DNA from: Pyronema omphalodes | Lineage: Eukaryota; Ascomycota; Pezizomycetes; Pezizales; Pyronemataceae | Length of the DNA: 64,000 nt | Assembly (NCBI GenBank): GCA_024516155.1 | Contig: JAJJXM010000006.1 | Span: 1,054,001 to 1,118,000, forward strand | Direction: 5' to 3' | Part shown: one piece after another, positions 8,155-52,345 of the stretch | How positions within the stretch are numbered: position 1 is the first letter of the stretch | Layout: every line of letters starts with the position of its first letter | The notes under the pieces: model-generated | What the model was told of the DNA's origin: nothing | Seen by the model: only the letters and a program-made list of their open reading frames with translations | The model's database searches: none | Position numbers and translations under genes: made by a program

Positions 8155-10748
8155 TTATCCGTCAAAAGCCGCGTATCCCATAACTTCTACTCCTCCGTCC
8201 ATCCTTTCCTTGTCTTTATCATGTAGTGGTGTGGCTCTATAGCGCATCTCCCTCGAGTACCCCAAGCCTGTCCGTTTGGCGAACTTCAGTAATGCAGATA
8301 TGCCGGTCTGGTTGCTGAGGAGTTGTGGTATGGTGAAGTTTGTTAATGTTGTCTGGCATAGTTCTTGTCGTGCGGTATGTGGTTTGGGGCAGTCAAGTAG
8401 GTAATGTTCTGCGGATATGAAGCCAGATCTGCAGTCGCAGGTGGTTGGTTGTTGTTCGGGGTGGGGATCAATTGGTGTACGTCCGCATCTGATGCGGAAG
8501 AGGGCCCGTGAGGTGCGGAAGGGTAGGTGTTCGAGGTGTTTAGGGTACGACAGCGAAGGGGGTAGTCCGTCCGGGGCGTCTTTTTGCCATTGTTGAAGGA
8601 AGTGGTGTCTGATTTGGGCTTTCATCCAAGCATGCGATGTGATGGCTGCGTTGCAGGGGTTTTGTCATTGTGCGCCGAGTTTTGCTAAGCTGTCTGCAAG
8701 TTCGTTGCCGGTGATGTTTGTGTGCGAGGGGGTCCAGACCGTGGTGAAGGTCCATCCCTTGGTGGTGAGGCGTTGTGCTAGTTGGAGTGTTTCTCTGGCG
8801 TACTGGTGGTTGTTGGTATTGCTGCGTAGGGCCTCTATGGCCGCTTGGTCGTCGAGGCTTAGGAATACTTCCGCTGGTTGTGTGTCTAGGAGCATGCGTG
8901 AACCTTCCGTTGTGGCATGTAGTTCTGTGTCGAAGACTTCGGATTGTGTTCCGAGGTGGCAGTGGTGTGATTGGAGGTGTTGGGGCCCGTTTGTTGTTAT
9001 TCTGTAGAGGGCTGCCCCGCATCCTGTGCTGTTGTTGTCCAGTTTCGATCCATCGGTGTAGAGGAGGTATGTGCCGGGTGGTAGTGTGTTCAGCCAGAAG
9101 AGGTGGCGGGTGTTGGGTTGGTCTGTCTTGTTGGGGTTCGGTGAGGATGTGGTGGGCATGTGGAAGGCTGGGTTTTCTGGGGTGCGGTTTTTGATTGTGC
9201 CGACCAGTAGATGTTCAATGTGGCCTCGGAGGTGTGATAGTCCAGGTGAGGTCTTTGGGCATTTTGGTGTGAGTTCGAGGCCTGCTAATGGGTGGTGAGC
9301 GGGTAGGAAGAGGAGTCCTAGCGCATATATTGCTGAAAGATAATCGAGGTAAATGTGGAGAGGGGGTAGGTGTGCGCAGATGCGTAGTTTCGTGAGGTTT
9401 GTGCTTAGGGTGAGTCCTGTGGTCCTGCGGATAGCGTTGTGGTATGTTGCTGTTAGTAGTCGCAGAGTGGTGTCTTTTCCGGTCCACTAGGCTGGGGAGG
9501 CTCTCAACATTTTTGGAAGGAGGAGGGTGAGGATGAGGTGTCGTGCCATATGGGTGTTCAGTCCGTTTGAGCGATGGCGAAGGTGTAGGAGGGAGCCCAG
9601 TGTATTCTTGCCGGCTCCAGCAGCTTGTGTTGTGTGTGTGATGAAGGTGAGTGATTCGTCAATGTTGACGCCGAGGCATTTGATGCTTCGGGTTGGCGTT
9701 ATCGTTGTGTTGTTTAGTGTGAGTTGGGGGAGAGTTGTGAGGTCCGTTACTTTGTGGTGGCTTGCGCTTGGGACGCAGTGAAGGAGTTAAGTTTTGTCTG
9801 AGGAGAAGTTGAGGCCGAGGTGTTTGCCACGTTCTGTGAAGTGCGCAGTTCGTGTTTTGACGCTGTCTATCGCGAAGTGTCCGGAGTTTGCTGATTGGAG
9901 AAGGCCAGTGTCGTGGACGTATGATGCGGTGAATTCCTTAGCTGGTTGGTGATTGGCTTCGAGCATAGCATCGGCATAGATGAGGAAGAGGATAGGTGCG
10001 GCGGGTAATCCTTGCGGCAATCCATATCGAAAGGGCTTGGGTGTCTCTAGTTGTTGATCACAGGAGAAGGCTAATGTGCGATTGGAGGTGAATGCTTTTC
10101 TCCATGCAATGAGGTAGGCAGGCATGTGACGCTGTCGCATCACCTGGAGGAGGAGTGTTGGGTTGGTGTTGTTGAAGGCACCCTCGATGTCATGTGCCAG
10201 AAGGGTAGGGCGAGGTGGGTGTTTCTTTTTCCGGTGGTGGGGATTGCGAGGTGGGTGCTGATGGGCGTGACGAATGCCAGTAGTGCGTCTATTGCTGAGT
10301 ATTGTTGTCTGGCCCCCATCTGGTGTGGTGATATGGCAAGGCATGCGGAGGCTGATTTGGCTAGTCGTAGAGCGGCAATCTTGTCGTATACCTGGGAAAT
10401 GCAGGGTAGGAGGGATATCGGGTGGTATGACTTTGGCGAAGTGTATTTTCTTTTGCCTGGTTTGGGGATGACTACGCATCGAGCTACCTTCCATTGCTCT
10501 GGGAAGGTCTCCTGCCGCAGGAGGGCGTTGAATAGTTTGGCTAGTGCGGAATGTTGGGCTTGGTGATATTCGGCGATCAGTTGGTAGGTGATGTTGTCGT
10601 GTCCAGGTGCTCATGCATATTTTAATTTTTGTATGACCTGGTTTACTTAGTCATTGGTTATGGGGTGGAAGTTGTCAGTTCTGTCTTTGTGTGTTTTGAC
10701 AAATTGAGGTGGGATGTCAGGGGGCTCATGTGTTTGGTGTGGGAATAG
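8155..10748 (-). pseudogene. LINE1 ORF2, 3' part (RT, RNase H, zinc motif)
   Basis: The sequence aligns with LINE2 ORF2. It contains RT blocks (10614-9787; the YVDD motif has become YVHD near 9915), RNase H with the first catalytic Asp in a TDGSK motif (about 9050), and a C-terminal Cys/His segment (8155-8625, CDC...H...C). The reading frame is cut by stops and shifts near 9785, 9490, 8665 and 8630. The region 10620-10748 is the RT-proximal part, ending at the C insertion. It encodes no working protein. Confidence 0.85.
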
Positions 10749-11708
10749 TGTCAAGAATCAACAATGACATGTTGATACGAGCTATGGTTGCGTCAGCAAT
10801 CGCATGGGCGTTGGGAATCATGGTCACGGTGTGGTACTTGGCTACCACGGGACGACGAGAATAGCAAAAGGAACAAGAAGACCACGGGGGACAAGGAGGA
10901 AGAAGGAACAAGAAGGTCGTCGGGAAAGAGGTGCAACGAGGTGGGACGAAGGAAAGCGAGATGAAGCAGGACGGAGCTCGGCGAAGCTTCGGTACAGCTT
11001 CGGTGAGCTATGGGGAGCTCCGGAGGATACGGCGAGGAAGGTAACACAGCTCGGTGGAGCTCGGTGGAGCTCAGCCGAGCTGGGAAAAAGAGACGGAAGA
11101 AGTTTCGGCAAGGAGCGGAGGAGGGAGCGACGGGTAGGGGACGCGCGAAGGTGGATCGAATACGGAGCTGCGCGAGAGCTCGCATAGGATTAGGAAAGCG
11201 CGGCGCGCGTTTCGGAAGGCGAGGAGAAATAGGAAAAAACCAGAAAAAAGGATACGCAATTATTGATCAGATACATGTTTGTAATTATTATTAGTTAGTT
11301 AGTTAGCATGGGAAACAAAGGGGCGTGAAGACTTACGGGAATTATGGGAAGCTCCGGGGGTTGGACTGCTGGGCATGAGCCCCTTGGGTTACGAGGAAAA
11401 GGAGGAGATTAATGGATATATGAGGGAGAGGGGAGGAACGCTGTATTTAGTCTTCACGCAATCAATTACCTTTCACCCCAACTTACCTTGACCACTCAAA
11501 GATTGTCTGTCCGTGTGCTGAACGAGATCACGCAAAACCCAGAGCCCCCAACCCTAACCCCTTCCATCACCACCTATCACTTCTCCCCCCAACCGGCCAC
11601 ACTACAAAGAAGACAGCCTGCCTACCTTGATAGGTACCAACGAAAGAACAGACGAGCCTTTGTGTGTCGCCTACCTCAGATATCGATATCTGCGTGGCGT
11701 ACCTAACA
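10749..11708 (+). repeat. 5' LTR of C
   Basis: 960 bp, TGTCAAG...CTAACA. It includes a GAGCTC/AGCTTCGG-rich tract (10970-11080). The first ~115 bp encode, in the 3' copy, the membrane-spanning end of ORF3. It lacks a 33-bp repeat present in the 3' LTR (995 bp). Confidence 0.95.
11417..11465 (+). promoter_or_regulatory. TATA box and self-priming segment of C LTR
   Basis: TATATGAG at 11417 (TATATAAG in the 3' LTR at 40736) is followed 39 nt later by ACGCAATCAA (11456-11465). That decamer is the exact complement of TTGATTGCGT at 11710-11719, one base past the LTR. The spacing puts the decamer at the predicted mRNA 5' end, as required for Tf1-type self-priming. Confidence 0.65.
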
Positions 11709-11709: not shown

Positions 11710-11719
11710 TTGATTGCGT
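11710..11719 (+). promoter_or_regulatory. Primer-binding region of C
   Basis: TTGATTGCGT, complementary over 10 bases to LTR positions 11456-11465. I did not recognise it as a tRNA 3'-end complement. Confidence 0.6.
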
Positions 11720-11908
11720 CTCCCCCCAAGGTACCCAACACACCAAAAAAAAGAACGACCGTGCAAACAAGAAAAAACCCTGGATCCCTTCCGATTACGA
11801 GATCTCGGCGAAGCTATCAGCGATTACGCCAGACCAGCCAGCCCAGTGACGCCAGAACAACCTTCGAGACCCCAGTCCCCAACAACGAACGAAGAAGATA
11901 ACTCCGGA

Positions 11909-12856
11909 ATGACGACCCCTCACGGAACCGCAGGAGCCTCCCTTCCCCCCGTTCAGATGACGACCGATCAACTGCGAACCCTCTTGCAACAGTTGTATCA
12001 ACCTCCCCCGTCCAGCCAACCTAACATCGTAGACCCCGAGCTCTATTATGGCGAAAGAGCCAAGTTACGAGCGTTCCTTATCCAATGCGAGCTCAAGTTC
12101 AACTGTGAACCTAGCAAATTCGATAGGGATGCGAAAAAGGTCAATTATGCCAGCGCCAGGTGTAGGGGAAACGCCTGGGCATGGATCGAACCATCAATGA
12201 AAGAGGAGGGAGTGAGTAAGTATGAAACCTAGAAGGATTTCAAAACAGCTATTGGTAGAGCCTTCGGAGAAGCCGACAGCAAGGAAGTAGCACGGCGAAA
12301 ATTCAAAAACATTAAGCAAGGAAACCGCTCTGCTGCTGCTTATTGGGCCGATTTCCAAAGACTAATGGCGGATTCGGATTATAACGACTCAATGTACATT
12401 GATCAGGTCCATCACGGGTTGAACATGGAAGTACAACGGCAACTCGCCCTGTTAGATGACAGACCTCGCAATGTCACGGACTACGTAAACAAATCTATTG
12501 CCCTTGACAATGGATTGTTCAACTTCCGAACACTTCATACTCGAAACGACAACCAGCACTACCGTGAATTCCGTGATACCCATGTCAGCCACCCCCGAAT
12601 GCATGAAAGCCACATGTCAGACCCTACACCGATGGAATTAGATGCGACCCGAAGAACGAGAGGAAAGGACCGAATGGAAGAAGAGAAGAGAAGACGAAAC
12701 AATGAGTGTTTCAACTGTGGGAAGACAGGTCATTTTTCCGCTCGCTGCCCTAACAAAAAACCTTATCCTCCAAGAAGAACCTACCGTGCAGCCGAAGCAA
12801 TGCTGAGCGAAGATGTACAAGAAGACGAGTCGGGAAAAGAGGATCCCCAGGAGTAA
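11909..12856 (+). pseudogene. gag: gag of C (one internal amber stop)
   Basis: Gag with a capsid-like region and a CCHC zinc knuckle (C-FNC-GKTGH-FSAR-C, about 12711-12753). The first ATG of the frame is at 11909, but the frame is open back to about 11714 without an ATG, so the true start may lie upstream. A TAG at 12230-12232 interrupts the segment between KYET and KDF, most likely from a Trp codon. The pol frame (-1) opens at 12754, directly at a run of six A (12755-12760), giving a ~100-nt gag/pol overlap. Confidence 0.8.
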
Positions 12857-15460
12857 GAAGTCCGACGCCGCTCCTGGGGAAGAAGAACATCGAACCAAAA
12901 CCCCCCGATCGCCCCCTCATAATATCAAGCATAGGACGATACCAACGGGACGAACAAAGTATCTTGGAAGTCACTATTCAAGGAAAAAATAACAAGACAC
13001 ACCATACAACCGCCATGGTCGACTGCGGGGCTACAGAAAATTTCATTGACCAAGATTACGCATACCAAATCAAACTGCCCCTAAATAAAAAAACAATACC
13101 AAGAAGAGTCCTCGCAGTTGACGGAAGAGAAATTGCAAGTGGTCCAGTGACCCACGACACCACCGTTAAGTTCACCATCAACAATCATCACGAAGACATA
13201 AATCTCCACTGCATCACTATTGGGAACTCACCGATAATAATGGAATTACCATGGTTAAAAAAGCACAATCCAAATATTGATTGGAAGGAAGGAAGAGTAA
13301 CGTTCGACTCCGAGAAATGCGCAAAATACTGCTTGGAACAATCACCACACGCCAGAACCATTCCCGAAGAATCAGCAATACGACAATACCAACAGGACCT
13401 CGTACAAACAACACAAGGCAAAGGAAACAAAAGCCACGAGGACCAGGGAGACTCGCTGAGCGAACTTTCTTCCGCGTACGAGGAGATATTCTTCATAAAT
13501 GAGTCGAACGAACGCTATAATAACGAACCAGAGGAAAAGAAAGACGCCGAAAAAGCCACCTCCGCGGCACAACAAACACCAGAAGAAATCGCACCGCGGG
13601 AATACCACGACCATCTAGTAGTATTTGGAGACAACAACAAATCCGTCCTACCGCCACATCGACGCCAAGACCACCAAATCCCCTTACTGGAGAATAAATC
13701 ACCGCCGTTCGAACCATTGCGAGCTCTTGACGAAAACCGACTTCAAGCACTGAAAGAATATATCGATAGTAGCTTGGAAAAGGGTTGGATCAGAAGCTCA
13801 ACCTCCCCGGCGGGGGCCCCAATCCATTTTGTAAAAAAGAAAGACGGGGGACTCCGCTTATGCGTGGACTACCGGGGGCTGAATGCCATAACCATCAAAG
13901 ACCGGACTCCCCTGCCATTGATTGGAGAAGCCTTGGATCGACTATCAAAAGCAAACATTTAAACCAAGGTAGATGTTAGAGACGCATATCACAACTTGCG
14001 GATAGCCAAGGGGGATGAATGGCAAACCGCCTTTTGGACGAAATACGGTCTCTATGAATATTTAGTAATGCCTTTCGGATTGACCAATGCACCAGCGTCA
14101 TTCCAGCGTTGGATGAATGAAGTACTCAGCGACTATCTCGACATATTTTGTATCGCATACCTAGATGATATTTTAATTTACTCCGACAATTCGCAACAAC
14201 ATCGTGACCATGTACGACTAATGCTAGCACGAATCCGTGACGTAGGCCTCAAACTAAAAGCAACAAAGTGCGAATTTCACACGCACAAAACGGAATACCT
14301 CGGATACATCATCGCCCCAGAAGGAATCTCGATGGACCCGGAAATAGTCAGAGCGGTAAAAGAAGGCAAAGAACCAACGAACGTAAAAGGAATCCAAAGC
14401 TTCCTTTGCTTTGCAAATTTCTATAGAAATTTCATACGAGATTTCAGCAAAATTACCAAACCGCTCACGAAACTCATCCGAAAAGATACACCCTTTGTCT
14501 GGGATGATGCGGCACAGCAAGCCTTCGACAACATTAAACCCCCATGATAACCCAACCCATCTTACGCCATTTCGAACCCAGCCAACCCATTACCCTAGAA
14601 ACAGACGCATCCGATTACGCTATCGGTGCGGTCTGCTCCCAACCAGACTCGGACGGTGTGCTACATCCGCTTGGATACTTCACCCGAAAGTTAAAAGATG
14701 CCGAACGAAATTATGACATACATGATAAAGAATTACTCGCAATTGTGGAAAGTCTACAAAAATGGGCAACTTATTGCAAAAGTACCCAACAACAAATCAA
14801 AATACTGACGGACTACAAAAACTTAGAGTATTGGCAAACAAAAAAAGATCTCAATTTACGCCAGGCACGGTGGGGAGAAGTACTTGCCAATTATGACTTC
14901 CGCATTGTGTATAGACCGGGCAAATTGGCTGGAAAACCGGACATCCTTTCCCGCGAGTCAGGAGACTCGCCCTGGGAAGGGGAGGCGAAACATCGACAAA
15001 ACAAGGACGGCATCTTACTCCCGGAACAAACTTTCGTTGTCAATACCACCGAGGTAGTAGAAATTAAAGAAGATGGGGATATAATAAAATTAATAAAAAC
15101 AAAAATGGCGACCGATCCAGAAAGACCAGACGTGCTGAAGAAGTTACGAAGCGGCGAACGACAAGATAATAAGGTAGCACTAGGACTGTGCGAGGAACGG
15201 AACGGGCTATTGACATACGAGGGACGCATCTGGATACCTCAAGATGACGAACTCCGTCTGCAGATTCTCCACGATCACCACGACGCACTCGTCGCCGGTC
15301 ATCCAGGGCGAGCTCGAACACTTGAACTCCTCTCCAGAAAATACTACTGGCCACAACAGCGTCAATACGTACAAAGGTACGTAGACAACTGCGATACGTG
15401 CAAACGAATAAAACCAATCCGCCATGCCCCCTTCGGGCTCCTCAAACCATTGCAACTACC
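12754..15460 (+). pseudogene. pol: pol of C, 5' part (protease, RT, RNase H, integrase zinc finger)
   Basis: Protease (VDCGATE near 13020), RT (AYLDDILIYSD near 14158-14190), RNase H (ETDASDYAIG near 14600) and the integrase HHCC finger (HH near 15275-15300; C-DTC near 15390-15400). Lesions: a stop at 13960-13962 between LSKANI and TKVD, and a -1 frame change near 14545. The coding sequence stops at 15460 where B1 is inserted and resumes at 38277-38282. Pol has no ATG near its start, consistent with frameshift expression from gag. Confidence 0.88.
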
Positions 15461-16000
15461 TGTAACGGCGAACAAGGGAGAGATAGCTGACGGAGAACCT
15501 GAGGGCTCTTCTCAATTATTCACTCTTGAGTTCGATGAATATAACCTTATAATAACTTCAACGTTAGAAACTCTTAAGCTGTGTCAAGCATCAACTTAGA
15601 GACTTTCTGTGTTTAGAAGTTTAAGGAAATAAACAAAGATTTCAAGGGACAAAGAGATCCAAAGACGGGGACGAGAACGAGGACGTAAACAAAGATTTCG
15701 ACAAAGTATTTGAATTTGTAAATAAACAAATAACTGTGTAAGGAGAAACGAAAACAAAATAAACAAACAAAGAAACAATCCTCTTATATACAATTTTTCC
15801 TCCTTACACGCCGAGCCACTATTTGCAGATTTTTCCCGAAAAATAACTAAGTAAACAACGCGGTCGCGGTTGCGCGTTCTAGACGCGCTAACGCGTTCGT
15901 ACCCAATTAGCGTGTTTGCGTGCACAGCCTCGTCGCGCGCTCGTTAGCGTATCTCGCGTGCGCGATATCGTAACTCGCGTGCGCGGTAGCGTACTTCGCG
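15461..16000 (-). repeat. B1 3' LTR, distal part
   Basis: Begins (plus strand) TGTAACGGC at the CTACC duplication and matches 37136-37676 over its whole length. It is cut at 16000 by A2; the target TCGCG (15996-16000) is repeated at 22124-22128. Confidence 0.93.
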
Positions 16001-30902: not shown

Positions 30903-31060
30903 TGCTTGATGTTTTTCCCATGTGGTTTTCATCAGGTAGAGTTGGTAGTAGGATGTAGGGGCTGGAGGACTACATCCAAAATTGATCACTTAAGTCACTG
31001 GGCTACGGCGTGGTGCGATCACAGAAAGATGAACTACGAGCTTCGGGACGAAGCTTGAAC

Positions 31061-31073
31061 AGGGGAGAGGTGG
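31061..31073 (+). promoter_or_regulatory. Polypurine tract of D1
   Basis: AGGGGAGAGGTGG directly before the 3' LTR (31074), the expected plus-strand primer. E has a similar GGGGGGAGGTGG. Confidence 0.8.
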
Positions 31074-32482
31074 TGTCACACCCTAAAATGTGTGAGGATA
31101 GAATTGGTATCATATATAACGCAATGGAGAATATGGCAAACTCGACAGAGAATGAATAGTCAGATTAGTATCCCGGGCCGGAACCCCCAGAGGAGCTCCG
31201 ACAAGCCACGTCACGTGATTCGTGACTTTCCGATAGGACCTCACGAGGATCCCGGCCCGAGGCGTCACAACTATTATTCAATGTCAGTTTGGGAGGATTC
31301 AGAAGAGAAGAGATTGGGGAACACTTACCTCATGGGTGTCGACTTACCCTTGAGCAACTACGAACGACGCTGATGGAGAACGAAGACGAAGACGAAAGGA
31401 CACCTCCTTATACTTGAGGAGTGTTCGGAAGTTCACGGCTACAAAGGGGTCTGCATCGGAAGAGAGTTCCAAGGATGTGCAGAGCGGTGCGACGAAATCA
31501 TCCGGTGTTACTTAGTTGGGTGAATGGTCAGCCAGGAAGACAAGGCAGAGTCTAGTCGGCAAACAGGAGTGGGGCTATGGACAAGGGTCAAGATTGCTAA
31601 GGCATGAGACGACGTCCATAAGCATGCATCCCTCTCAAGGAAACTGTTTGGTGGAACCGATATGACGCGCCCTTAGGCTATTGACTACCAACCAAGGAAC
31701 AGCTCGGCGTTTGCATCCACACCAGGGTGTGGCTGCGCGCAAGTGCGCGCAGGTGGAGCCATAATGACATCACACAGGAATGTGTCGGAGTGATCCACTC
31801 CGGTAGGGCATGGATGCCTTATGATGTCAGATTCCTCCATTCGCAATCGAGATTCTCTAGGGAGATCTATGATAGCACGACTCACAAGATAAATGACTCA
31901 CATGTTATTTGTCAGAGGAGTTCATGCATTATGCAGTCAAGCGGAGTTGCCCTCACATATGACTCATAACCCTGACACCTGATTGAAAGGTGTGGTAGTA
32001 CAGAGAGGAATGTCAAGGATTAGTCTGACGATAGCAAGCATCATGCAAGCAAGTAATCAATATGATTACGCACTTCGTATGATGCAATCTATCAGCAGAT
32101 GCGTCTCAGAAATGACTCTTGTCTTATCTCCTAGGCTCAGTTTGGAAATTGGTTCCCTAGGAAGTCTGGGCGAACTTGTAGACGAAAGTCTATAAAAGAG
32201 CCTTTGTCTTCCCTCTCTCTCCTCCATCATCAACCATTTGATCCTCTACGCGTCGATACCTATTATCACCAACGAATACCTCCGAAGACAACCCTTAAGT
32301 TTATTCCGCCTGTGATCGATTAATTCTCTTCCTAGCTTTATCTTTGGATAAGCTCTATTAGTTCTTGGGAACGAAGTGTCTGCCTGTTCTTGGGAACGAA
32401 GTGTCTGTCTTCACTGAGAACGAAGCACTTGAGAAACAATCGGATAAGCCTCTGCATAGTCGAAGCTGTGCCCAGGTTCACA
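31074..32482 (+). repeat. 3' LTR of D1
   Basis: 1,409 bp, same length as the 5' LTR and identical on inspection except G/A at 24433/31986. Ends GGTTCACA before CCAGA. Confidence 0.97.
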
Positions 32483-35400
32483 CCAGATCTCCGGGCTGAT
32501 AATTCGGTGACGGGAGTCGATGTTTATCGGCATTCTCTTGATAACGTAGATTAGCTCTATTGATTTCAGCTCGTAAATGGTTATGGATTTCGGCGAGGGT
32601 TTTCGAAGTTGTGAGGGCCCGTCGGTCGTTTACATCCTTCGTAGCTGCTGGGAGTAAATCAAATTGGCAACGGGGGTCGAATCCTTTATTAGCGAAGAAC
32701 GGGGAAGTTCCCGTTGTCTCGAATGCTTGGTTATTCGCAGCGAATTCTGCTAATGGTAACCAGTCAGCCCAATCGTCTTGAAGATAGTTGACGTGGGCTC
32801 GGAGGTATTGTTCCATAATAGCGTTCATTCGTTCTGTTTGACCGTCCGTTTGTGGGTGGAATGCCGTAGATAATCGAGGCCCGATTCCCAAACGTCGACA
32901 GAGATTCTTCCAAAACAAAGCAGCGAACTGGGGTCCTCGATCAGAGATAATGGTAAGGGGGAGTCCATGCAATCGAAAGATGTGGGTAATAAACAAAGAC
33001 GATAATTCCTTTGCGTCGATATCTGTTTGACAGGCAATCAGATGTCGTTCTTTGGTTAATCTGTCCACAACTACCCAAATTGCATCACACCCATTGGACC
33101 ATGGTAATCCTGTAACGAAGTCCATTGATATGTCCTGCCAGGGTCTTTCTGGGATAGGTAGTGGGTGTAGGATACCAAACGGGGCGTGTCTGGTAGGTTT
33201 CGAACGTTGGCAGGTATGACAATTTCGAATATATCTTTCCACGTCTGTCCTCATCTGGGGCCACGTATAGGTTCTTAAGAGGTATTCTAATGTTTTAGAT
33301 CTACCTGGGTGTCCAGCCGTAGGAGAGTCGTGGTGTTGTTGCATTAGGTGTAATCGTAGAGGTTCGTAATTCGGGACCCATAAACATCCCCGGTAGAGTA
33401 GACGGTTATTGTTTACTGTACATTCAGCTAATGTAATGTCTTTACAATAACGAGTGTTATTGTTTAGCATTTCAATAACCTTAGTAGGGACTGGGTCTTT
33501 CTCGTAGGCTTCCGTGAAGAGCTGGGATAAGGCGGGGTTTGTTTGTTGTGGGTCCGGTATTACGGTTTGTTGCAAATTCGTTATTGTTTGTTGATTACTG
33601 GGGGTAACAGCCGCAACGTGAAGGATATTCTCTGGCTTAATGATCGTTGTGTGGTTCTCTAGGGAGCGTTCATCCCCCTCTTTAGGCAGATCTCCGGATC
33701 GACGAGTCAGTGCGTCTGGTTTACCGCCTGCGGTACCGGGGCGGTAAACAATCTTAAAATTAAACTGAGACAAGAACTGGGACCAACGGGCTTGACGGCG
33801 GTTCAAGAGCTTTGTCGAAGTAAAATATTCCAGATTCTTATGATCTGACAGTACTCGAATGGGGTTAATAACAGATTGTAATTCGGGACGCCATTCTTCG
33901 AAAGCCCGGACGATAGCCATGAGTTCTTTATCGTATATCTCATAATTACATTCGGCGGGGGAATGTTTCTTTTGAAGTAAGCAATAGGGTGTAAGATTCC
34001 TTCGTCATCATACTGAGAAAGTACTCCGACAGAGACATAATCAGAAGGATCGGTTTCGACAATAACATCTCGGTCTGGGTCGAAACGAGCCAGAACGGGG
34101 GCGGATGTAAATGTCGATTGCAATTCCTCAAAGGCCTGTTGCTGAGGTTCCGACCAGACGAAGGAACTCCCTTTCGTGTGAGTAACGTGAGAGGTTGGAC
34201 TATTTTTGAATAGTTCTTAACGAAACGTCGATAGAAATTTGCAAAACCCAAAAATGCTCTAACATCTTTGAGGTTCCGGGGAGATTCCCAATCTCGAACT
34301 GCAGTAATCCCTTCAGGGTCCATCTTTATTCCTTCTGTACTAATGATGAGTCCTAACTACTTTACTTCCTTCTGATGGAACTCGCATTTCTCTGGTTTGA
34401 GATGTAACCCTGCTTTTTCGAATGCTTCGAGGATCAATTTAACATGTTGTTTATGTTCTTCGAGATTATCCGAATAGATCAGGGTGTCATCCAAATAGGC
34501 AGTACAGAATCGATCAAGGTAAGGTGCCAATACGTCGTTAATGAAGTTCTGAAACGTTGCAGGGGCATTGGTAAGCCCGAAGGGCATAACCAATGATTCG
34601 AATAATCCGTACCGGGTACGAAAGGCGGTTTTCCATTCTTCCCCATTTGCCATACGTATTAAATTATACGCTCCCCTAATGTCGAGCTTAGTGAACCACT
34701 TAGCTCTTGAAAGGTTCATTAAGGTATCCTGCATCAGGGGAAGAGGGTAGCGGTTCTTGATCGTTCCGGCGTTGATTCCACGATAATCGACCACCAAACG
34801 CAATGAACCATCGCCTTTCTTTACGAAAAGAATGGGAGCAGCCGCTGGGGATGAAGAGGCACGGATGAAACCTTTGGTCAGGTTTTCATCTAACCAACGT
34901 TTTAATTCCTCCAACTCTGGACGTGATAGGGAGTAAAGGGGGCCGAAAGGAAGGCTGAAAACCATTGACACGTGATATCTTGTGATCCGACGGTCGATGG
35001 GGCGGTAACTTATCGGCATTGACTTTTTCGAAGATTCCCAAGTACTGGTGATATTCGGGTGGTACAATAGTCTTAAGATCCGGTTCCTCTTTCTCTGGTT
35101 GAAGAGCTGTGGTGATTTCATTCAAAGATAAGGAGAATTGTTCGGCTTTTCCGTAACGGTTATTGGCATTGTTTACGATACGTCGAAACGTCGTAGCTGA
35201 AATAGCACAGATCTTATTCTGTTGTTTCGGAGCAATACCCTTAACAGGGGTGGGTGTTAACGTGGTTCGGTGGGGGAGGCAGTTCGGTGATGAGAATTTG
35301 ATATCGTTGTCGGCGAAGTTTATTGTAACATCGTGTTTACGAAGCCATGGGATTCCTAAAACGAGGGGATAATGACCAAGCCGAGTAACGTAGGCAGTTA

Positions 35401-38276: not shown

Positions 38277-39370
38277 CTACCAACGAGACCACGGGACTCC
38301 ATATCCATGGACTTTATCACCGGATTACCTGTAACGGAAGGAAGTAATTTGTTGTGGGTTATAGTGGATCGACTCACCAAGATGACCCACTTTGTTGCAT
38401 GAAACGACACGATGGGTCCGAAAGACTTAGCAGAAGGATTTATCACCCACATAGTACGAGCCCATGGCCTCCCCAACAGTATCGTATCTGACGGAGGGTC
38501 GTTGTTTACCTCGAAATTTCGGAAACAAATAACGGAAGCCATGGGAACAACTCGGAACCTCAGTACAGCATTTCATCCCGAAACGGATGGGCAAACAGAA
38601 AGAACAAATGCTACGCTGGAACAATATTTACGAGCATATTGTAATTACCAGCAAGATAACTGGAAAACACTGTTGCCCATCGCTGAATATTTTACAACAA
38701 TACCAAATCCGAACCCCTAGGGATTACTCCGTTCTACGCAAACTATGGATATCACCCGAGATTTCAACCGGACCTTAGTACAGCAAAAAACCCCACCCCC
38801 GATGTATTAGATTATGTTACCTCATTAAATAATCTACAAAATCAACTACGTACAGAAATACAATGGGCACAGGCCGAACAAGCGGAACAGGCAAATAGGA
38901 AAAGGAAACCCGACCCCATTCTAAGAAAAGGAGATAAGGTAGGGCTAAAAAGGAAGTTCATAAAAACAACCCGCCCATCGAATAAATTAGATTACAAGCT
39001 ATTAGGGCCCTACACCATCCTTGAAAAAATAGGAACAAAAGCATATAAACTCGCACTTCCCCCCAGCGTAAAATTCCACCCTGTCTTTCACCTCTCCCTG
39101 TTAGAACCCACCACAACAAAGTATCCCCGTATCCCCCGACACACCAAATCCCCTCCTCCGGCGATCATCGTGGATGGACAACACGAGTGGGAAGTCGAAG
39201 AAATAATTGACTTCCGTTACTACCGAAAACAACTACAGTATAAGGTCAAGTGGAAGGGATTCCACGACGAGGATAAGACCTGGTATCCCTCCGGCAACTT
39301 CGACAACTCCCCAGAAGTCATCCAGGACTTCCACCGGAAATACCCCCGAAAACCAGCACCCAAAAACTAG
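38277..39370 (+). pseudogene. pol: pol of C, 3' part (integrase core to chromodomain)
   Basis: Resumes the frame lost at 15460, after the CTACC duplication. Integrase core (MDFITG near 38312; SDGG near 38490; Glu of QTE near 38599), GPY motif (near 39008) and a chromodomain (about 39185-39345, with YKVKWKGF). Lesions: TGA at 38401-38403 replacing a codon after FVA, and a frame change near 38690. It ends at TAG 39368-39370, only two bases before ORF3. Confidence 0.85.
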
Positions 39371-39372: not shown

Positions 39373-40149
39373 ATGAGAAACGATTCCCCGCAGGAGTACA
39401 CCTCCTCGGAAGAGACGATGGTCCGGAACCACGATCTGACCTTTCCCCGACCTTTCTTTGATATACTCCACGAAAACCTGCACTGGACCTTCTGTCGCGA
39501 AGACCAGTGTACTACTCACCAAGATCAAAAAAATCAGAAAAACCCCTATAATCCTCCCGGAGAAAACGGGTACCCGACGGACCACTGCTACTGTGGTGAA
39601 ACGCATTCCCCCGAACTCGACGAAGTCATCCGAACCCAACGACTTAACCCCCGAAAAGCCTGCCGACGATGGCAACAAGGACGATGCATCTGCCATCAAT
39701 GCGGATTCCTCGTCAACCTAACCCAGCTCTCCTCACGATGCCGAATCCCCGCGAGAATCCCCAAACTCACCAATTACGACGAAACCCATACGACGCTACC
39801 CAACCCAGAAGAACCCAGAAAACCCAACCTCCCTGCATCCTCTTCTCAGGGTGAAATTCAACCAACGCAGACCCTCGATACGGAACGACCTCCGGAACCA
39901 GAGCCCCGGTCACCCTACTATCCTCTAACCCCGGGTCCCCAACCAATTCCCAATCACCGACGAACTCAGGAATCCACTCACCTATCAGACCCAAGAAGCC
40001 TCGTCGGAGCCTCGGCCCTGGAAAGGGGGCTAATGTCAAGAATCAACAATGACATGTTGATAGGAGCTATGGTCGCGTCAGCAATCGCATGGGCGTTGGG
40101 AATCACGGTCACGGTGTGGTACTTGGCTACCACGGGACGACGAGAATAG
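39373..40149 (+). CDS. ORF3 of element C: Cys/His-rich protein with C-terminal membrane segment
   Basis: 258 codons, uninterrupted, ATG two bases after the pol stop. There is no N-terminal signal peptide. Residues 41-123 hold eight Cys (41, 46, 72, 74, 97, 105, 107, 110, plus 123) and His 49, 71, 78, 108, suggesting metal binding. A Pro-rich linker (~140-215) follows. Residues ~229-252 are a strongly hydrophobic segment (LIGAMVASAIAWALG and onward), then a short TTGRRE tail. The last 116 bp lie inside the 3' LTR, and the 5' LTR carries the same coding sequence. The position after pol and the membrane anchor recall env-like ORFs, but I recognise no fusion or glycoprotein features, and it could be a tail-anchored zinc protein. 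No function is assigned. Confidence 0.65.
   Translation: MRNDSPQEYTSSEETMVRNHDLTFPRPFFDILHENLHWTFCREDQCTTHQDQKNQKNPYNPPGENGYPTDHCYCGETHSPELDEVIRTQRLNPRKACRRWQQGRCICHQCGFLVNLTQLSSRCRIPARIPKLTNYDETHTTLPNPEEPRKPNLPASSSQGEIQPTQTLDTERPPEPEPRSPYYPLTPGPQPIPNHRRTQESTHLSDPRSLVGASALERGLMSRINNDMLIGAMVASAIAWALGITVTVWYLATTGRRE
40020..40033 (+). promoter_or_regulatory. Polypurine tract of C
   Basis: GGAAAGGGGGCTAA directly before the 3' LTR, located inside ORF3. Confidence 0.7.
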
Positions 40150-41028
40150 CAAAAGGAACAAGAAGACCACGGGGGACAAGGAGGAAAAAGGAACAAGAAG
40201 GTCGCGGGGTCAAGGAGGAAAGAGGAACAAGAAGGTCGTCGGGGAAGAGGTGAAACGAGGTGGGACCAAGGAAAGCGACATGAAGCAGGACGGAGCTCGG
40301 CGAAGCTTCGGTACAGCTTCGGTGAGCTATGGGGAGCTCCGGAGGATACGGCGAGAAAGGTAACACAGCTCGGTGGAGCTCGGTGGAGCTCAGCCGAGCT
40401 GGGAAAAAGAGACGGAAGATGTTTCGGCAAGGATCGGAGGAGGGACCGACGGGAAGGTGACGCGCGAAGGTGGATCGAATACGGAGCTGCGCGAGAGCTC
40501 GCGTAGGATTAGGAAAGCGCGGCGAGCCTTTCGGAAGGCGAGGAGAAATAGGAACAAACCAGAAAAAAGGATACGCAATTATTGATCAGATATATGTTTG
40601 TAATTCTTATTAGTTAGTTAGTTAGCATGGGAAACAAAGGGGCGTGAAGACTTACGGGAATTATGGGAAGCTCCGGGGGTCGGACTGCTGGGCATGAGCC
40701 CCTCGGGTTACGAGGAAAAGGAGGAGATTAATGGATATATAAGGCAGAGGGGAGGAACGCTGTATTTAGTCTTCACGCAATCAATTACCTTTCACCCCAA
40801 CTTACCTTGACCACTCAAAGATTGTCTGTCCGTGTGCTGAACGAGATCACGCAAAACCCAGAGCCCTCAACCCTAACCCCTTCCATCACCACCCATCACT
40901 TCTCCCCCCCAACCGGCCACGCTACAAAGAAGACAGCCTGCCTACCTTGATAGGTACCGACGAAAGAACAGACGAACCTTTGTGTGTCGCCTACTTCAGA
41001 TATCGATATCTGCGTGGCGTACCTAACA
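40034..41028 (+). repeat. 3' LTR of C
   Basis: 995 bp, TGTCAAG...CTAACA, followed by the AATAG duplication. It differs from the 5' LTR by scattered substitutions and a 33-bp tandem repeat (near 40190-40240, GGAACAAGAAGGTCG units). TATATAAG at 40736-40743. Confidence 0.95.
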
Positions 41029-41033
41029 AATAG

Positions 41034-43968: not shown

Positions 43969-46900
43969 TTATCCGTCAAAAGCCGCGTATCCCATAACCG
44001 CTACTCCTCCGTCCATCCTTTCCTTGTCGTTATTATCAAGTGGTGTAGCTCTATAGCGTATCTCCCTCGAGTACCCCAAGCCCGTCCGTTTGGCGAACTT
44101 CAGTAACGCAGATATGCCGGTCTGGTTGCTGAAGAGTTGTGGTATGGTGAAGTTTGTGGATGTTGCCTGGCATAGTTCTTGTCGTGCGGTATGTAGTTTG
44201 GGGCAGTCGAGTAGGTAATGTTCCGCGGATATGAAGCCAGATCCGCAGTCGCAGGTGGTTGGTTGTTGTTCGGGGTGGGGATCAATTGGTGTACGTCCGC
44301 ATCTGATGCGGAAGAGGGCCCGTGAGGTGCGGAAGGGTAGGTGTTCCAGGTGTTTAGGGTACGACAGCGAAGGGGGTAGTCCATCCGTGGCGTCTTTTTG
44401 CCATTGTTGAAGGAAGTGTTGTCTGATTTGGGCTTTCATCCAAGCATGCGAGGTGATGGCTGCGTTGCAGGTGTTTTGTGATTGTGCGCCGAGTTTTGCT
44501 AAGCTGTCTGCAAGTTCGTTGCCGGTGATGTTTGTGTGCGAGGGGGTCCAGACCGTGGTGAAGGTCCATCCCTTGGTAGCGAGGTGTTGTGCTAGTTGGA
44601 GTGTTTCTCGCGCGTACTGGTGGTTGTTGGTATTGTTGCGTAGGGTCTCTATGGCCGCTTGGTTGTCGAGGCATAGGAATACTTTTGCTGGTTGTTTGTC
44701 TAGGAGCATGCGTAAACCTTCCGTTGTGGCGTGTAGTTCTGTGTCGAAGACTTCGCATCGTGTTCCGAGGTGGCAGTGGTGTGATTGGAGGTGTTGTGGC
44801 CCGTTTGTTGTTATTTGGTAGAGGGCTGCCCCGCAACCTGTGCTGTTGTTGTCCAGTTTGGATCCATCGGTGTAGAGGAGGTATGTGCCGGTTGGTAGTG
44901 TGTTCAGCCAGAAGAGGTGGCGGGTGTTGGGTTGGTCTGTCTTGTTCGGGTTCGGTGAGGATGTGGTGGGGATGTGGAAGGCTGGGTTTTCTGGGGTGCG
45001 GTTTTCGATTGTGCCGACCAGTAGATGTTCAATGTGGCTTCGGAGGTGTGATAGTCCGGGTGAGGTTTTTGGGCATTTCGGTGTGGGTTTGAGGCCTGCT
45101 AATGGGTGGTGAGCGGGTAGGAAGAGGAGTCGCAGCGCATATTTTGCTGAAAGATAATCGAGGTAAATGTGGAGGGGAGGTAGGTGTGCGCAGATCCGTA
45201 GTTTCGTGAGGTTTGTGCTTAGGGTGAGTCCTGTGGCCCAGCGGATAGCGTTGTGGTATGTTGCTGTTAGTGGTCGCAGAGTGGTGTCTTTCCCGGTCCA
45301 CCAGGCTGGTGAGGCCCACAGCATTTTTGGAAGGAGGAGGGTGAGGATGAGGTGTCGTGCCATATGGGTGTTCAGTCCGTTTGAGCGATGGCGAAGGTGT
45401 AGGAGGGAGCCCAGGGTATTCTTGCCGGCTGCTGCAGCTTGTGTTGTGTGTGGGATGAAGGTGAGTGATTCGTCAATGTTGACGCCGAGGTATTTGATGC
45501 TTCGGGTTGGCGTTATCGTTGTGTTGTTCAGTGTGAGTTGGGGAAGAGATGTGAGGTCCGTTGCTTTGTGGTGGCTTGCACTTGGGACGCAGTGGAGGAG
45601 TTCAGTTTTGTCTGGGGAGAAGTTGAGGCCGAGGTGTTTGCCACGTTCTGTGAAGTGCTCAGTTCGTGTTTTGAGGCGGTCTATCGCGAAGTGTCTGGAG
45701 TTTGCTGATTGGAGCAGGCCGGTGTCGTCGACGTATGACGCGGTGAGTTCCTTAGCTGGTTGGTGGTTGACTTCGAGCATAGCGTTGGCATAGATGAGGA
45801 AGAGGATAGGTGAGGCGGGTGATCCTTGCGGCAATCCACATCGAAATGGCTTGGGTGTCTCTAGTTGTTGATCAAAGGAGAAGGCTAATGTGCGATTGGA
45901 GGTGAATGCTTTTGTCCATGCAATGAGGTAGGCAGGCATGTGACGCTGTCGCATCACCTGGAGGAGGAGTGTTGGGTTGGTGTTGTTGAAGGCGCCCTCG
46001 ATGTCATGTGCCAGAAGGGTAGGGTGAGGTGGGTGTTTCATTTTTCCGGTGGTGGGGATTGCGAGGTCGGTGCTGATGGGCGTGACGATTGCCAGTAGTG
46101 CGTCTATTGCTGAGTATTGTTGTCGGGCCCCCATCTGGTGTGGCGATATGGCAAGGCATGCGGAGGCTGATTTGGCTAGTCGTAGAGCGGCAATCTTCTC
46201 GTATACCTTGGAAATGCATGGTAGGAGGGATATCGGGCGGTATGACTTTGGCGAAGTGTATGTTCTTTTGCCTGGTTTGGGAATGACTACGCATCGAGCT
46301 ACCTTCCATTGCTCTGGGAAGGTCTCGTGTCGGAGGAGGGCGTTGAATAGTTTGGCTAGTGCGGAATGTTGGGCTTGGTGGTATTTGGCGATCAGTTGGT
46401 AGGTGATGTTGTCGTGTCCGGGTGCTGATGCATATTTTAATTTTTGTATGACTTGGCTTACTTCGTCGTTGGTTATGGGGTGGAAGTTGTCAGTTGTGTC
46501 GTTGTGTGTTCTGACAAATCGGGGTGGGATGTCAGGAGGCTGATGTGTTTGGTGTGGGAATAGGGAGTTTCGTAGTATGGTGCATTTTTCTTCGAACGTT
46601 TCCTTTCCTTCAAGGGGTGGGAGTGGTCGGTTGTGTGTGTCACCAGCGGTGAGGCAGTTCCAAACGTCTGTGGAGGTGGAGTTCTGTAGCCGTGTCACCC
46701 AGTATTGTTCCTTGGCGAATTGAACTGCTTGCTTCCATTCGTAGCGCTGGTGTTTGGCTTGCAGCTTGAGGGTGGGGTTTGTGCGGTCTGAGCGATAGCG
46801 TCGTTCAGCGTGTTGTAGTTTCTTTTTCTTTTTGTTGAGGTCTGGATGCCACCATGGCGCGTGCTTTGCTCTGGGCTGGACCCATGGTACTGCGGCATCG

Positions 46901-47760
46901 GTAGCTTTGTGAATGAGGGAGGTGATATCTTCGGCTGCACGGTGGGCAGTCCGTGCGTTTGTGATGTTGTCGAGGTTGACAGGGTTGTCGATGATCGTTT
47001 GCTGATACAATTGCCAGTTGGCTTTGCGCCATGCTCGTTTGGGTGTTTTGTTGGGGGTGGTGAGGTTCATGTGGATAGTGCAGATTGCGTGATCGGAGGT
47101 GGAGTCTGGGTTGATTTCGTGGATGAGGATTTTGTCTGTAATGCTACCTGCAGAAAAGCATAGGTCGATGACCGACGGTCGCATTCCGTTGCGTGGGTAG
47201 TGTGTTGGGATGCCTGGTTCGTTGTGCAGGATGAAGTGATGTTGGTCCATCCAAGTTGCGATTGTATTGGAGTGATCTCGGTGGCGTCGGAGTTGGTCGT
47301 CATCTATGGTAGTAGTGCCCCCCCACCATTCATGGTGGGCGTTCATGTCCCCCATGATGATTGCAGGGATCTGGGGTCGAAAGGAGGGGAGGAGGTCGGC
47401 TAGGGCGTTTGGTCTTCCAGGTGAGTAGAAGTTGTAGATCATTATTGGTTGGTTATTAGGCAGGCAGAGTTTGGTGCCAAGGAATGAATTCTGGTGCGTG
47501 AAGGTGGTGGTTGCATATACCCCTGGTAGTCGGCGTATGTAGGTGGTGCATAGTGGCTTTTCGTCTGTGGGGGTGAACATATGGAAATCGGGATGTGTTG
47601 GCGGGAGTTTGGTGTGTTCGATAGCGGGTTCTTGGAGAAGTATAACGAGTGTTTTTGGGTTAGATGCAAATGTTTGTAGTGCTGATGTTGTTGTAGCATG
47701 TCCTTTTGCGCAGTTCAGCAGCTGCACACATGCTGTGTCCATTTTTGTTGTGTTATTCAT
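43969..47760 (-). CDS. LINE2 ORF2: endonuclease-RT-RNase H
   Basis: 1,263 codons, intact. N-terminal APE-type endonuclease (QEP near residue 38; D138 in GDMNAHH; SDHA near 217). Reverse transcriptase about 430-720 with the catalytic YVDD at 676-679. RNase H about 958-1090 with D965 in TDGSK, E in DTELHA, D in CLDNQA and D in GNELAD. C-terminal Cys/His motif (CDC...H...C near 1180). All key residues I checked are present, so it should nick DNA, copy its RNA by target-primed reverse transcription and degrade the RNA strand. Its ATG overlaps the ORF1 stop (ATGA), implying coupled translation. Confidence 0.95.
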   Translation of the reverse strand: MNNTTKMDTACVQLLNCAKGHATTTSALQTFASNPKTLVILLQEPAIEHTKLPPTHPDFHMFTPTDEKPLCTTYIRRLPGVYATTTFTHQNSFLGTKLCLPNNQPIMIYNFYSPGRPNALADLLPSFRPQIPAIIMGDMNAHHEWWGGTTTIDDDQLRRHRDHSNTIATWMDQHHFILHNEPGIPTHYPRNGMRPSVIDLCFSAGSITDKILIHEINPDSTSDHAICTIHMNLTTPNKTPKRAWRKANWQLYQQTIIDNPVNLDNITNARTAHRAAEDITSLIHKATDAAVPWVQPRAKHAPWWHPDLNKKKKKLQHAERRYRSDRTNPTLKLQAKHQRYEWKQAVQFAKEQYWVTRLQNSTSTDVWNCLTAGDTHNRPLPPLEGKETFEEKCTILRNSLFPHQTHQPPDIPPRFVRTHNDTTDNFHPITNDEVSQVIQKLKYASAPGHDNITYQLIAKYHQAQHSALAKLFNALLRHETFPEQWKVARCVVIPKPGKRTYTSPKSYRPISLLPCISKVYEKIAALRLAKSASACLAISPHQMGARQQYSAIDALLAIVTPISTDLAIPTTGKMKHPPHPTLLAHDIEGAFNNTNPTLLLQVMRQRHMPAYLIAWTKAFTSNRTLAFSFDQQLETPKPFRCGLPQGSPASPILFLIYANAMLEVNHQPAKELTASYVDDTGLLQSANSRHFAIDRLKTRTEHFTERGKHLGLNFSPDKTELLHCVPSASHHKATDLTSLPQLTLNNTTITPTRSIKYLGVNIDESLTFIPHTTQAAAAGKNTLGSLLHLRHRSNGLNTHMARHLILTLLLPKMLWASPAWWTGKDTTLRPLTATYHNAIRWATGLTLSTNLTKLRICAHLPPLHIYLDYLSAKYALRLLFLPAHHPLAGLKPTPKCPKTSPGLSHLRSHIEHLLVGTIENRTPENPAFHIPTTSSPNPNKTDQPNTRHLFWLNTLPTGTYLLYTDGSKLDNNSTGCGAALYQITTNGPQHLQSHHCHLGTRCEVFDTELHATTEGLRMLLDKQPAKVFLCLDNQAAIETLRNNTNNHQYARETLQLAQHLATKGWTFTTVWTPSHTNITGNELADSLAKLGAQSQNTCNAAITSHAWMKAQIRQHFLQQWQKDATDGLPPSLSYPKHLEHLPFRTSRALFRIRCGRTPIDPHPEQQPTTCDCGSGFISAEHYLLDCPKLHTARQELCQATSTNFTIPQLFSNQTGISALLKFAKRTGLGYSREIRYRATPLDNNDKERMDGGVAVMGYAAFDG

Positions 47761-49238: not shown

Positions 49239-49475
49239 TGTGTTCCCGCGCAAAGGAGAAGAAGTAAGAGTAAAAGCAATAGAGGAGGCTGTGCAACCTT
49301 CGATCGAGAAGTAAACTAATCTGATCTTGGTTTTATTGCGACTAGAGCTACTATGGCTATTGCGCTCCACCTACTTCATGCCCATACCCTGCAACACCGC
49401 AGTTGCTCTGGGATACAACCACCCGCGCGACCTATAATACTATGTACAGGAGATCCGGCTATGCCCAGGGTATTT

Positions 49476-51542: not shown

Positions 51543-52345
51543 ACAGCCTGTAACTCTTCTCTTTCACGTTGGCTTGCCGCGGCGGCCTCGTCTTGTTGCT
51601 TCTTCAGGCGATCATGATCAGCCTGTTGTCGTTTCTGGAGTTGTGAAAGGCGGTCCATTGCCTTTCGGAGTCGCTTTTTCTCTTCCGCCAGGTCCGCCTT
51701 CAATGCAGCTTCCTTATTCTTCAATTCCTGCTTGTCTTTGGCCATCCGGGCCTCCAAGTCCTTTTCTTTTTGTCGTAATTCTGCTGCCCATCGTTCGCAG
51801 CTGGCGTTCCATTCCTCCTGTTTTGTGGCTTCCGCTTTATAGAAAGCGATGATGATTTGTTGGTTATTTTCTAACTTTTCGGTATAAGCCTCCATGGTTA
51901 CTGGTCGATGGACCTCGTCATTGGCCCGAGTGATCTGGAGGTCCTCCATTTGTCGTTGCAGCTGAGTATATGCTTCGGCGACCTCCATGAATTGGCGGTT
52001 GGTGAGGTTGAATTGGGCATTTACCGCGTTACCCATCTGTTGTTGTGTTTGTCGGAGGGCTTGGTCCAAGTTGACTTGGATGTTTTCGTATGCCGTTTGC
52101 ATATTCATGAACAGCCGGATTGCATCGCCCTCGTCGTTCTGGATCTGGCTGCGTAGGTTGCTGATGTCTACCGCAGTACGAGCCAGTTTTCTCATCAGGT
52201 CCTCAGCCCGTGGTGGAATGCTCGGAATACTGATGGAATCTGGTATCCCACTCATTTCTACCTCATTACTGACGCCGTCGGTGTCAGCACTGAGGAGAGC
52301 CCATGAGGGGAGGGGTTGGAATTCGTATTCCATAAGTTCAGCCAT
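51536..52345 (-). pseudogene. gag: gag N-terminal fragment of E-III
   Basis: Open frame starting MAELMEYE for about 268 codons, then truncated at the deletion. Strongly charged and coiled-coil-like (residues ~130-265, KEKDLEARMAKDKQEL and similar). It keeps the frame that is lost through several 1-bp indels in E-I, so the two gag copies come from separately decayed elements. Confidence 0.85.

What the first reader, a model, noticed from the sequence alone, without database searches (positions are those of the whole stretch)
39373..40149. A third ORF after pol in a fungal chromovirus, with a metal-binding-like region and an LTR-encoded membrane anchor
Seen: ORF3 starts two bases after the pol stop, is open for 258 codons, has clustered Cys/His (residues 41-123), a Pro-rich linker and a C-terminal hydrophobic segment (~229-252) whose coding lies in the LTR. 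Both LTRs carry this segment in frame (10749-10864 and 40034-40149). Known: most Ty3/gypsy chromoviruses have only gag and pol; an ORF in this position in other lineages is often env-like. Inference: a tail-anchored accessory protein, perhaps tethering particles to a membrane. Caution: the ORF being intact while gag/pol have about five lesions is not significant over 258 codons.
Basis: partly seen in the sequence, partly recalled or inferred. Interest (0 to 1): 0.78.

Follow-up and report, generated by a model that had tools for sequence, protein, structure and literature searches.

The report
Membrane-anchored third gene in fungal retrotransposons
A group of jumping genes that has multiplied in this fungus carries, besides its two standard genes, a conserved third gene for a probable zinc-binding protein with a membrane anchor at its tail, and that anchor is encoded in the repeat at the element's end; what the protein does is not known.

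Summary
ORF3 (39373-40149) is a real, conserved third gene of a clade of Ty3/gypsy chromoviruses, not a chance frame. I sorted copies in the same genome into five families (ORF3 identity 32-63%). In three of them, 92 of 114 full-length copies have no stop. ORF3 starts -1 to +13 nt from the pol stop in 16 of 19 loci and runs through the polypurine tract into the 3' LTR; its only hydrophobic segment is LTR-encoded. Thirteen Cys/His positions are kept in 91-99% of 77-87 aligned relatives. dN/dS between families A and B is 0.22, and 0.11 in the Cys/His block, yet ORF3 evolves faster than gag or pol. It has no fold match; one of 20 proteins scanned passes a short Pfam motif, WCCH. Two other Ty3/gypsy elements in the window lack it. 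Best reading: a tail-anchored, zinc-binding accessory protein, probably made by reinitiation after pol, holding Gag/RNA complexes at an internal membrane. The gene is well supported; its function is inference. Env is disfavoured; a host-factor antagonist remains open.

The parts
39373..40149 (+). ORF3, third gene (258 aa plus stop)
   Evidence: homologues
39469..39744 (+). Cys/His block, residues 33-124 (13 conserved Cys/His positions; H119 is Leu in this copy)
   Evidence: model pLDDT 84-92 per ten-residue block apart from residues 51-70
39745..39987 (+). Pro-rich, fast-evolving linker, residues 125-205, low model confidence (probably disordered)
40005..40017 (+). 13-nt box CGGAGCCTCGGCC directly upstream of the PPT, inside ORF3
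   Evidence: pattern CGGAGYCTCGGCC found 177 times in the genome against 2 for the reversed control; 96 of the 100 listed places lie at an ORF3 match
40020..40029 (+). polypurine tract GGAAAGGGGG, inside ORF3
40054..40122 (+). predicted transmembrane segment (about residues 228-250), LTR-encoded
   Evidence: Kyte-Doolittle peak in the tail of one copy from each of five families; helix 217-257, pLDDT 94-97 over residues 231-250
40034..41028 (+). 3' LTR (995 bp, TG...CA)
10749..11708 (+). 5' LTR (960 bp); 30 of 960 aligned positions differ from the 3' LTR; its first 116 bp repeat the ORF3 tail
10744..10748 (+). target-site duplication AATAG, left
41029..41033 (+). target-site duplication AATAG, right
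38741..39370 (+). 3' end of pol (SH3_Tf2-1 plus chromodomain) and its TAG stop
11714..15599 (+). broken gag and pol of the same element: capsid-like, protease, RNase H and integrase zinc domain on separate frames; pol is then interrupted by nested insertions up to about 38.28 kb

Best explanation
ORF3 is a genuine third gene of a fungal chromovirus clade. SHOWN: conserved position, frame, Cys/His pattern, C-terminal hydrophobic segment and purifying selection. INFERRED: (1) it is translated from the genomic mRNA by termination-reinitiation at the pol stop; (2) the block binds about three zinc ions; (3) the protein is a tail-anchored membrane protein with its N-terminus in the cytosol, held on an internal membrane (ER or nuclear envelope); (4) there it holds an element component (Gag, genomic RNA or particle) at the membrane and so helps assembly or nuclear delivery. 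My odds: a conserved protein-coding gene about 0.97, tail anchoring about 0.85, zinc binding about 0.8, reinitiation about 0.6. The confidence below is for step 4 together with the rest.
For: Five families with the same layout. 92 of 114 full-length copies in three families have no stop. 135 of 150 related RT copies have ORF3 downstream. Start -1 to +13 nt from the pol stop in 16 of 19 loci. NG86 dN/dS A vs B: whole 0.22 (bootstrap 0.14-0.31), Cys/His block 0.11, LTR tail 0.20 (bootstrap upper bound 0.58). Hydrophobic peak 1.8-2.1 in the tail of all five families' examples, at most 0.62 elsewhere. Under simulated neutral drift a stop-free hydrophobic tail survives in 0.8-2.5% of runs per lineage. 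Thirteen Cys/His positions kept in 91-99%. 129 relatives at E <= 0.001 with a profile. Confident model of block and helix, though the whole model is poor (mean pLDDT 66.0, pTM 0.34).
Against: No expression, localisation or metal data exist here. No fold match, so no borrowed function. Part of the conserved tail motif (residues 206-220, SLVGASA...) is explained by nucleotide constraint (13-nt box plus PPT): third positions vary least there. Selection on the tail is uneven: NG86 0.18-0.66 for the LTR part and 0.28-0.82 from residue 206 on across the between-family pairs, and YN00 gave 1.35 for B vs C. Nothing ties ORF3 to Gag or RNA physically. A protein that helps the element in cis might be expected to evolve no faster than gag, yet ORF3 does (34-36% against 62-67% identity for A-D and A-E).
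Confidence: 0.4

Rival explanations
1. ORF3 is a membrane-anchored antagonist of a host factor (as retroviral Vpu or Nef act, recalled; or an RNA-silencing suppressor): the zinc block binds a restriction, silencing or trafficking factor and the tail places it on a membrane.
For: It is the fastest-evolving of the three genes, with a linker dN of 0.735 against 0.130 in the block and linker ratios over 1 in three pairs (A-A 2.48, B-B 1.37, B-C 1.28; few sites). One of 20 proteins scanned one at a time passes Pfam's cut-off for WCCH (P0082, 24.4 vs 22.4 bits; P0039 just misses at 22.3), a motif reported in the begomovirus silencing suppressor V2 (PMC7831499, one passage read). Like nef and sag (recalled), the gene overlaps the 3' LTR.
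Against: WCCH is a 16-18 residue match here, absent or below cut-off in the window's own family. In the V2 paper the motif spans aa 79-102 and the heading read gives residues 1-92 as needed for activity, so the motif's own role is unclear. Fast evolution of a disordered linker is ordinary. No site-wise selection test was run.
Confidence: 0.25
2. ORF3 is an Env-like protein used for leaving or entering cells.
For: [quoted passage not shown]
Against: No N-terminal hydrophobic segment in five of five family examples (hydropathy only), so no signal peptide is visible; the Cys residues sit in Cys/His metal-type spacing, not in a disulphide ectodomain; only two N-glycosylation sequons in 258 aa; no similarity to viral folds.
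Confidence: 0.07
3. ORF3 is a membrane adaptor whose partner is nucleic acid in the nucleus or at the nuclear envelope, such as RNA export or particle docking at pores.
For: Zinc-type block plus a basic stretch before the anchor in families D and E (sequences). The nematode element Cer1 has an accessory protein with a Cys finger that is needed for export of genomic RNA (CERV, PMC10309623, passages read).
Against: CERV comes from a spliced mRNA and is described as nuclear, with no membrane segment mentioned in the passages read; it was not compared with ORF3 by sequence here. Families A-C look less basic before the anchor.
Confidence: 0.15
4. The frame is a passenger: the tail is kept by LTR cis-signals and the rest by chance.
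For: Residues 206-220 are constrained at the DNA level.
Against: dN/dS 0.11 in the Cys/His block far from the LTR, 13 conserved ligand-type residues, 92 of 114 copies without stops, retained hydrophobicity at 37-55% nucleotide divergence among families A-D.
Confidence: 0.03

Closest known systems
Sense additional ORFs between pol and 3' LTR (aORF-3S, 'env-like') of plant LTR retrotransposons (PMC7264820)
   Same: Position, orientation, transmembrane segment in some, disputed function (passages read).
   Different: Those are plant elements; here the ORF is in fungal chromoviruses, starts at the pol stop, and has a 13-position Cys/His block and an LTR-encoded anchor. No sequence comparison with them was made.
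ORF3s of bdelloid rotifer LTR retrotransposons (PMC5408684)
   Same: Third ORF after pol; some with transmembrane domains and Cys residues.
   Different: In the passages read one small ORF3 has two TM regions with Cys between, another is an env-derived glycoprotein, others encode GDSL esterase or DEDDy exonuclease. No sequence comparison was made.
Additional ORFs drawn in fungal chromoviruses by Novikova et al. (PMC2864245)
   Same: An 'add. [quoted passage not shown]
   Different: No sequence, domain or anchor is described in the passages read; whether any is this family could not be checked.
brtn of Boty-like elements in Botrytis cinerea
   Same: Additional gene of a fungal gypsy element.
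   Different: brtn is antisense, by the title of Zhao et al. 2011 in reference lists; that paper itself was not read.
nef (lentiviruses) and sag (MMTV), recalled
   Same: Accessory gene running into the 3' LTR; membrane-associated product.
   Different: No sequence relation tested; anchor position and start differ (recalled).
Pfam PF03716 WCCH motif
   Same: H-W-x2-C-x4-C-x2-H stretch; 1 of 20 proteins scanned one at a time is over the cut-off.
   Different: A short motif only; the window protein itself has no Pfam match.

Membership tests
Ty3/gypsy chromovirus (element) | Gag, PR-RT-RH-IN order with C-terminal chromodomain | tested here: met
   Relative L010: protease, RVT_1, RNase H, H2C2, rve, SH3, Chromo; window pol end Chromo 5.3e-13
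Ty3/gypsy chromovirus (element) | LTRs TG...CA, TSD, PPT | tested here: met
Env / env-like protein | N-terminal signal peptide and large ectodomain before the TM | tested here: not met
   Only one hydrophobic segment, at the C-terminus, in five of five family examples (hydropathy only)
Env / env-like protein | Traceable homology to a viral glycoprotein | tested here: not met
   No match with E <= 0.001 in Pfam, PDB sequences, PDB folds or BFVD for the window protein or profile
Tail-anchored membrane protein | Single TM near the C-terminus, short tail, no other hydrophobic segment | tested here: met
   by hydropathy and model only
Tail-anchored membrane protein | Post-translational membrane insertion, N-terminus in the cytosol | not testable with these tools
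   needs an experiment
Zinc-binding protein | Conserved Cys/His ligand set in a compact fold | tested here: met
   13 positions kept in 91-99% of 77-87 rows; block pLDDT 84-92 apart from residues 51-70
Zinc-binding protein | Metal actually bound | not testable with these tools
   needs metal analysis
PF03716 WCCH | Score over the Pfam cut-off (22.4 bits) | tested here: inconclusive
   Window protein no match; 0 of 14 (best E 0.0033); 1 of 20; precomputed for 1 of the 120 listed
Additional sense ORF between pol and 3' LTR (aORF-3S) | Sense ORF after pol, present in most copies | tested here: met
   135 of 150 related RT copies

The most novel reading that the evidence does not exclude
A clade of fungal chromoviruses has had a full third gene for as long as its families have been apart: a three-zinc, tail-anchored membrane protein whose anchor is carried in the LTRs and whose start is coupled to the pol stop. 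It would make these elements membrane-associated replicators, a retrovirus-like assembly step without an Env, or give them a dedicated counter-defence protein, in a kingdom where Ty3/gypsy elements are usually described with gag and pol alone.
Probability: 0.3. Interest if true: 0.8.

Novelty: new variant of a known kind. Interest (0 to 1): 0.6.

Why it matters
Fungal LTR elements are usually described with gag and pol alone (PMC3248453, passages read). A third gene kept under selection in at least five families, with 177 copies of a 3'-end signature in one genome and 129 scored relatives at E <= 0.001 in a protein database, means that a successful element group depends on something more. It gives a defined protein for asking whether LTR retrotransposons use membranes without an envelope, and a clean case of one DNA stretch serving as PPT flank, LTR end and anchor-coding sequence.

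Tried and rejected
Chance ORF: rejected by the other copies. Env: no visible signal peptide or ectodomain. Fold match to a known zinc domain: two models, PDB twice, BFVD once, VIA twice, no usable match. Sequence match to solved structures: none with E < 1. My first reading that family E has its anchor outside the LTR (note) was wrong: the aligned LTR was cut short by an indel, and E starts its LTR at the homologous codon. The conserved SLVGASA motif was first taken as a protein signal; the codon-position count shows that DNA-level constraint explains it. YN00 dN/dS failed for most pairs, so NG86 is reported. gag and pol dS were saturated, so no dN/dS is given for them. In one search my family E tail was read out of frame, and its row and pairs are dropped. 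Host species: not determined; a fungus (65 Fungal_trans matches, 0 of 14 control genomes). One relative is named Pyronema domesticum (P0021).

Literature: ten searches. None turned up this protein, but subscription journals are mostly not held and no supplements could be read.

Full report
WHAT IS THERE. ORF3 at 39373-40149 is as described: 258 codons, ATG two bases after the pol TAG, Cys/His-rich middle, Pro-rich linker, hydrophobic tail. The element is bounded by LTRs 10749-11708 and 40034-41028 (30 of 960 aligned positions differ), with TSD AATAG and a matching empty site in a paralogous LINE copy near 46.56 kb. Its gag and pol are broken and pol is interrupted by nested insertions. The polypurine tract (40020-40029) and the LTR start (40034) lie inside ORF3; residues 222-258 are encoded by the LTR.

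IT IS A FAMILY OF GENES. A search of the window's own 60.8 Mb genome scored 147 of 384 candidates; two more searches with other family members scored 127 of 512 and 114 of 511. All three lists are therefore lower bounds. I sorted the copies into five families, A (the window's) to E; one ORF3 from each gives 32-63% identity between families. Counting only matches over the whole query: A 13 copies, 10 without a stop (window copy included); D 39, 32 without; E 62, 50 without; together 92 of 114. Families B and C were not counted this way, and frameshifted copies appear as partial matches and are not in the count. Searching with the reverse transcriptase of family A gave 150 scored copies of 1052 candidates. 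Of these, 120 have an ORF3 match 1.5-5 kb downstream on the same strand and 14 at 5-14 kb; the window's own element has it about 25 kb away behind nested insertions (places). That is 135 of 150.

SAME LAYOUT. Of the 20 loci, 19 were tested (L017 has no ATG there and was left out). In 16 of 19 the ORF3 ATG lies -1 to +13 nt from the pol stop: A +2, B +3 or +5, C +11 or +13, D +5, E -1, where TAA and ATG overlap as TAATG. The three exceptions: L022 lost its usual stop (-4); L018 has no stop and reads from pol into ORF3; L009 has an earlier TGA in the pol frame, eight codons before the usual stop, though its junction still reads TAGCAATG. In examples from all five families the LTR begins at the homologous ORF3 codon and the hydrophobic tail is LTR-encoded. 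Two other Ty3/gypsy elements in the window do not have ORF3. The one at 23521-32483 has gag, pol, a weak chromodomain match below Pfam's cut-off, LTRs 99.93% identical, and 171 nt between pol and LTR. The other, 16040-22124, has a pol frame without a chromodomain match that ends inside the LTR. Their pol proteins are 39% and 46% identical to A, against 69-85% in the alignments within the ORF3 group. So the gene appears to mark one clade; no tree was built.

SELECTION. A versus B (NG86): whole ORF3 dN 0.284, dS 1.318, ratio 0.22 (bootstrap 0.14-0.31); Cys/His block 0.11 (0-0.21); LTR-encoded tail 0.20 (0-0.58); linker dN 0.735 with dS saturated. An earlier alignment gave 0.25, 0.11, 0.20 and 0.42. 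The other between-family pairs give 0.32-0.50 for the whole gene and 0.15-0.30 for the block where dS was computable. Against the reading: the tail is less clear, 0.18-0.66 for its LTR part and 0.28-0.82 from residue 206 on; YN00 gave 1.35 for that region in B vs C; linker ratios exceed 1 in three pairs. Residues 206-220 are constrained as DNA: third positions differ least there (0.23 against 0.29 and 0.31). They contain a 13-nt box found 177 times in the genome against 2 for the reversed control; 96 of the 100 listed places lie at an ORF3 match. The hydrophobic tail is not explained by that: under simulated neutral drift at 37-55% divergence a stop-free tail with hydropathy >= 1.7 survives in 0.8-2.5% of runs, yet the five family examples keep it (1.8-2.1). 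ORF3 is the fastest of the three genes: A-E identity is 36% for ORF3 and 62% for gag; pol is about 74%.

PROTEIN. In an 88-row alignment (the window protein and 87 of the 143 relatives with ids; short and pol-fused ones mostly left out) thirteen Cys/His positions are kept: H33 75/77, H37 71/78, C41 75/78, C46 76/78, H49 75/78, C72 82/83, C74 80/83, H78 80/83, C97 84/87, C107 85/86, C110 86/87, H119 83/87, C123 84/86. Twelve would suit three zinc ions; that assignment is inference. The window copy itself has Leu at 119. AlphaFold gives the block pLDDT 84-92 in ten-residue means (49-72 over residues 51-70), a 217-257 helix with 94-97 over residues 231-250, and low confidence in the linker; the whole model is weak (mean 66.0, pTM 0.34; a shallower alignment gave 61.8). 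No PDB match by fold, none by sequence with E < 1, and the six BFVD hits (E 1.1 or more) are noise. The window protein has no Pfam match. Twenty proteins were scanned one at a time (16 relatives, two pol fusions, two fetched family members); one passes WCCH (P0082, 24.4 bits, cut-off 22.4) and one just misses (P0039, 22.3).

DISTRIBUTION. A profile search found 129 proteins at E <= 0.001 (120 listed; only the 7998 candidates sharing most words were scored). None of those listed has a more telling name than 'hypothetical protein'; an earlier search gave one named Pyronema domesticum. Two are pol-ORF3 fusions (P0119, P0142), which independently place the gene after integrase. The host is a fungus (65 Fungal_trans matches, none in 14 controls); the species was not identified.

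HOW IT PROBABLY WORKS. Ribosomes finishing pol reinitiate at the adjoining ATG, so little ORF3 is made (inferred from spacing). The product has no visible N-terminal signal and one C-terminal membrane segment, so it would be inserted after translation with the zinc block in the cytosol (inferred). The block most likely holds an element component, Gag or RNA, at an internal membrane (inferred, 0.4). The main rival is antagonism of a host factor (0.25), helped by fast evolution and the WCCH hint. An Env role is unlikely (0.07).

KNOWN OR NEW. [quoted passage not shown] brtn of Botrytis is antisense by title. In ten searches I found no description of this protein, which is not proof that none exists. 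I therefore file it as a new variant of a known kind.

Noticed in passing
window 39727-39729 (codon 119 of ORF3): The window copy has Leu where 83 of 87 aligned proteins have His, so this particular copy has probably lost a metal ligand.
   Followed up: yes
window 40005-40017: 13-nt box CGGAGYCTCGGCC just upstream of the polypurine tract: 177 copies in the genome against 2 for the reversed control; 96 of the 100 listed places lie at an ORF3 match. A possible cis-signal that also codes for the conserved SLVGASA motif.
   Followed up: partly
window 23521-32483: A young Ty3/gypsy element with a weak chromodomain match (LTRs 1410 bp, 99.93% identical; gag 25039-27210, pol 27294-30902) without ORF3.
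   Followed up: partly
window 16040-22124: Another Ty3/gypsy element whose pol frame ends inside its 3' LTR and which has no ORF3.
   Followed up: partly
window 43969-49370: LINE-like two-ORF element (endonuclease, RT, RNase H), related to the copy into which the ORF3 element inserted; it served as the empty site.
   Followed up: partly
L018 6908-7882: Family B copy in which pol and ORF3 form one uninterrupted frame; two metagenome proteins (P0119, P0142) are also pol-ORF3 fusions.
   Followed up: no
L010 just after its 5' LTR, and other loci: TTTGATTGCGTC follows the 5' LTR in the examples of families A, B, D and E (TTAGATTGCGTC in C); I could not assign it to a tRNA primer.
   Followed up: no
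L010, L012, L016, L026, L027 near the gag-pol junction: gag ends in a conserved GKE(D/S)PQE and overlaps pol, which lies in the -1 frame, suggesting programmed frameshifting.
   Followed up: no
window 51544-56098 and 59443-64000: 4.56 kb direct repeat, 98.7% identical, carrying minus-strand frames.
   Followed up: no
P0039-P0142 (metagenome group): A large ORF3 group with a long Gln-rich, heptad-looking linker in place of the Pro-rich one (by eye); the window's genome was not searched with it.
   Followed up: no
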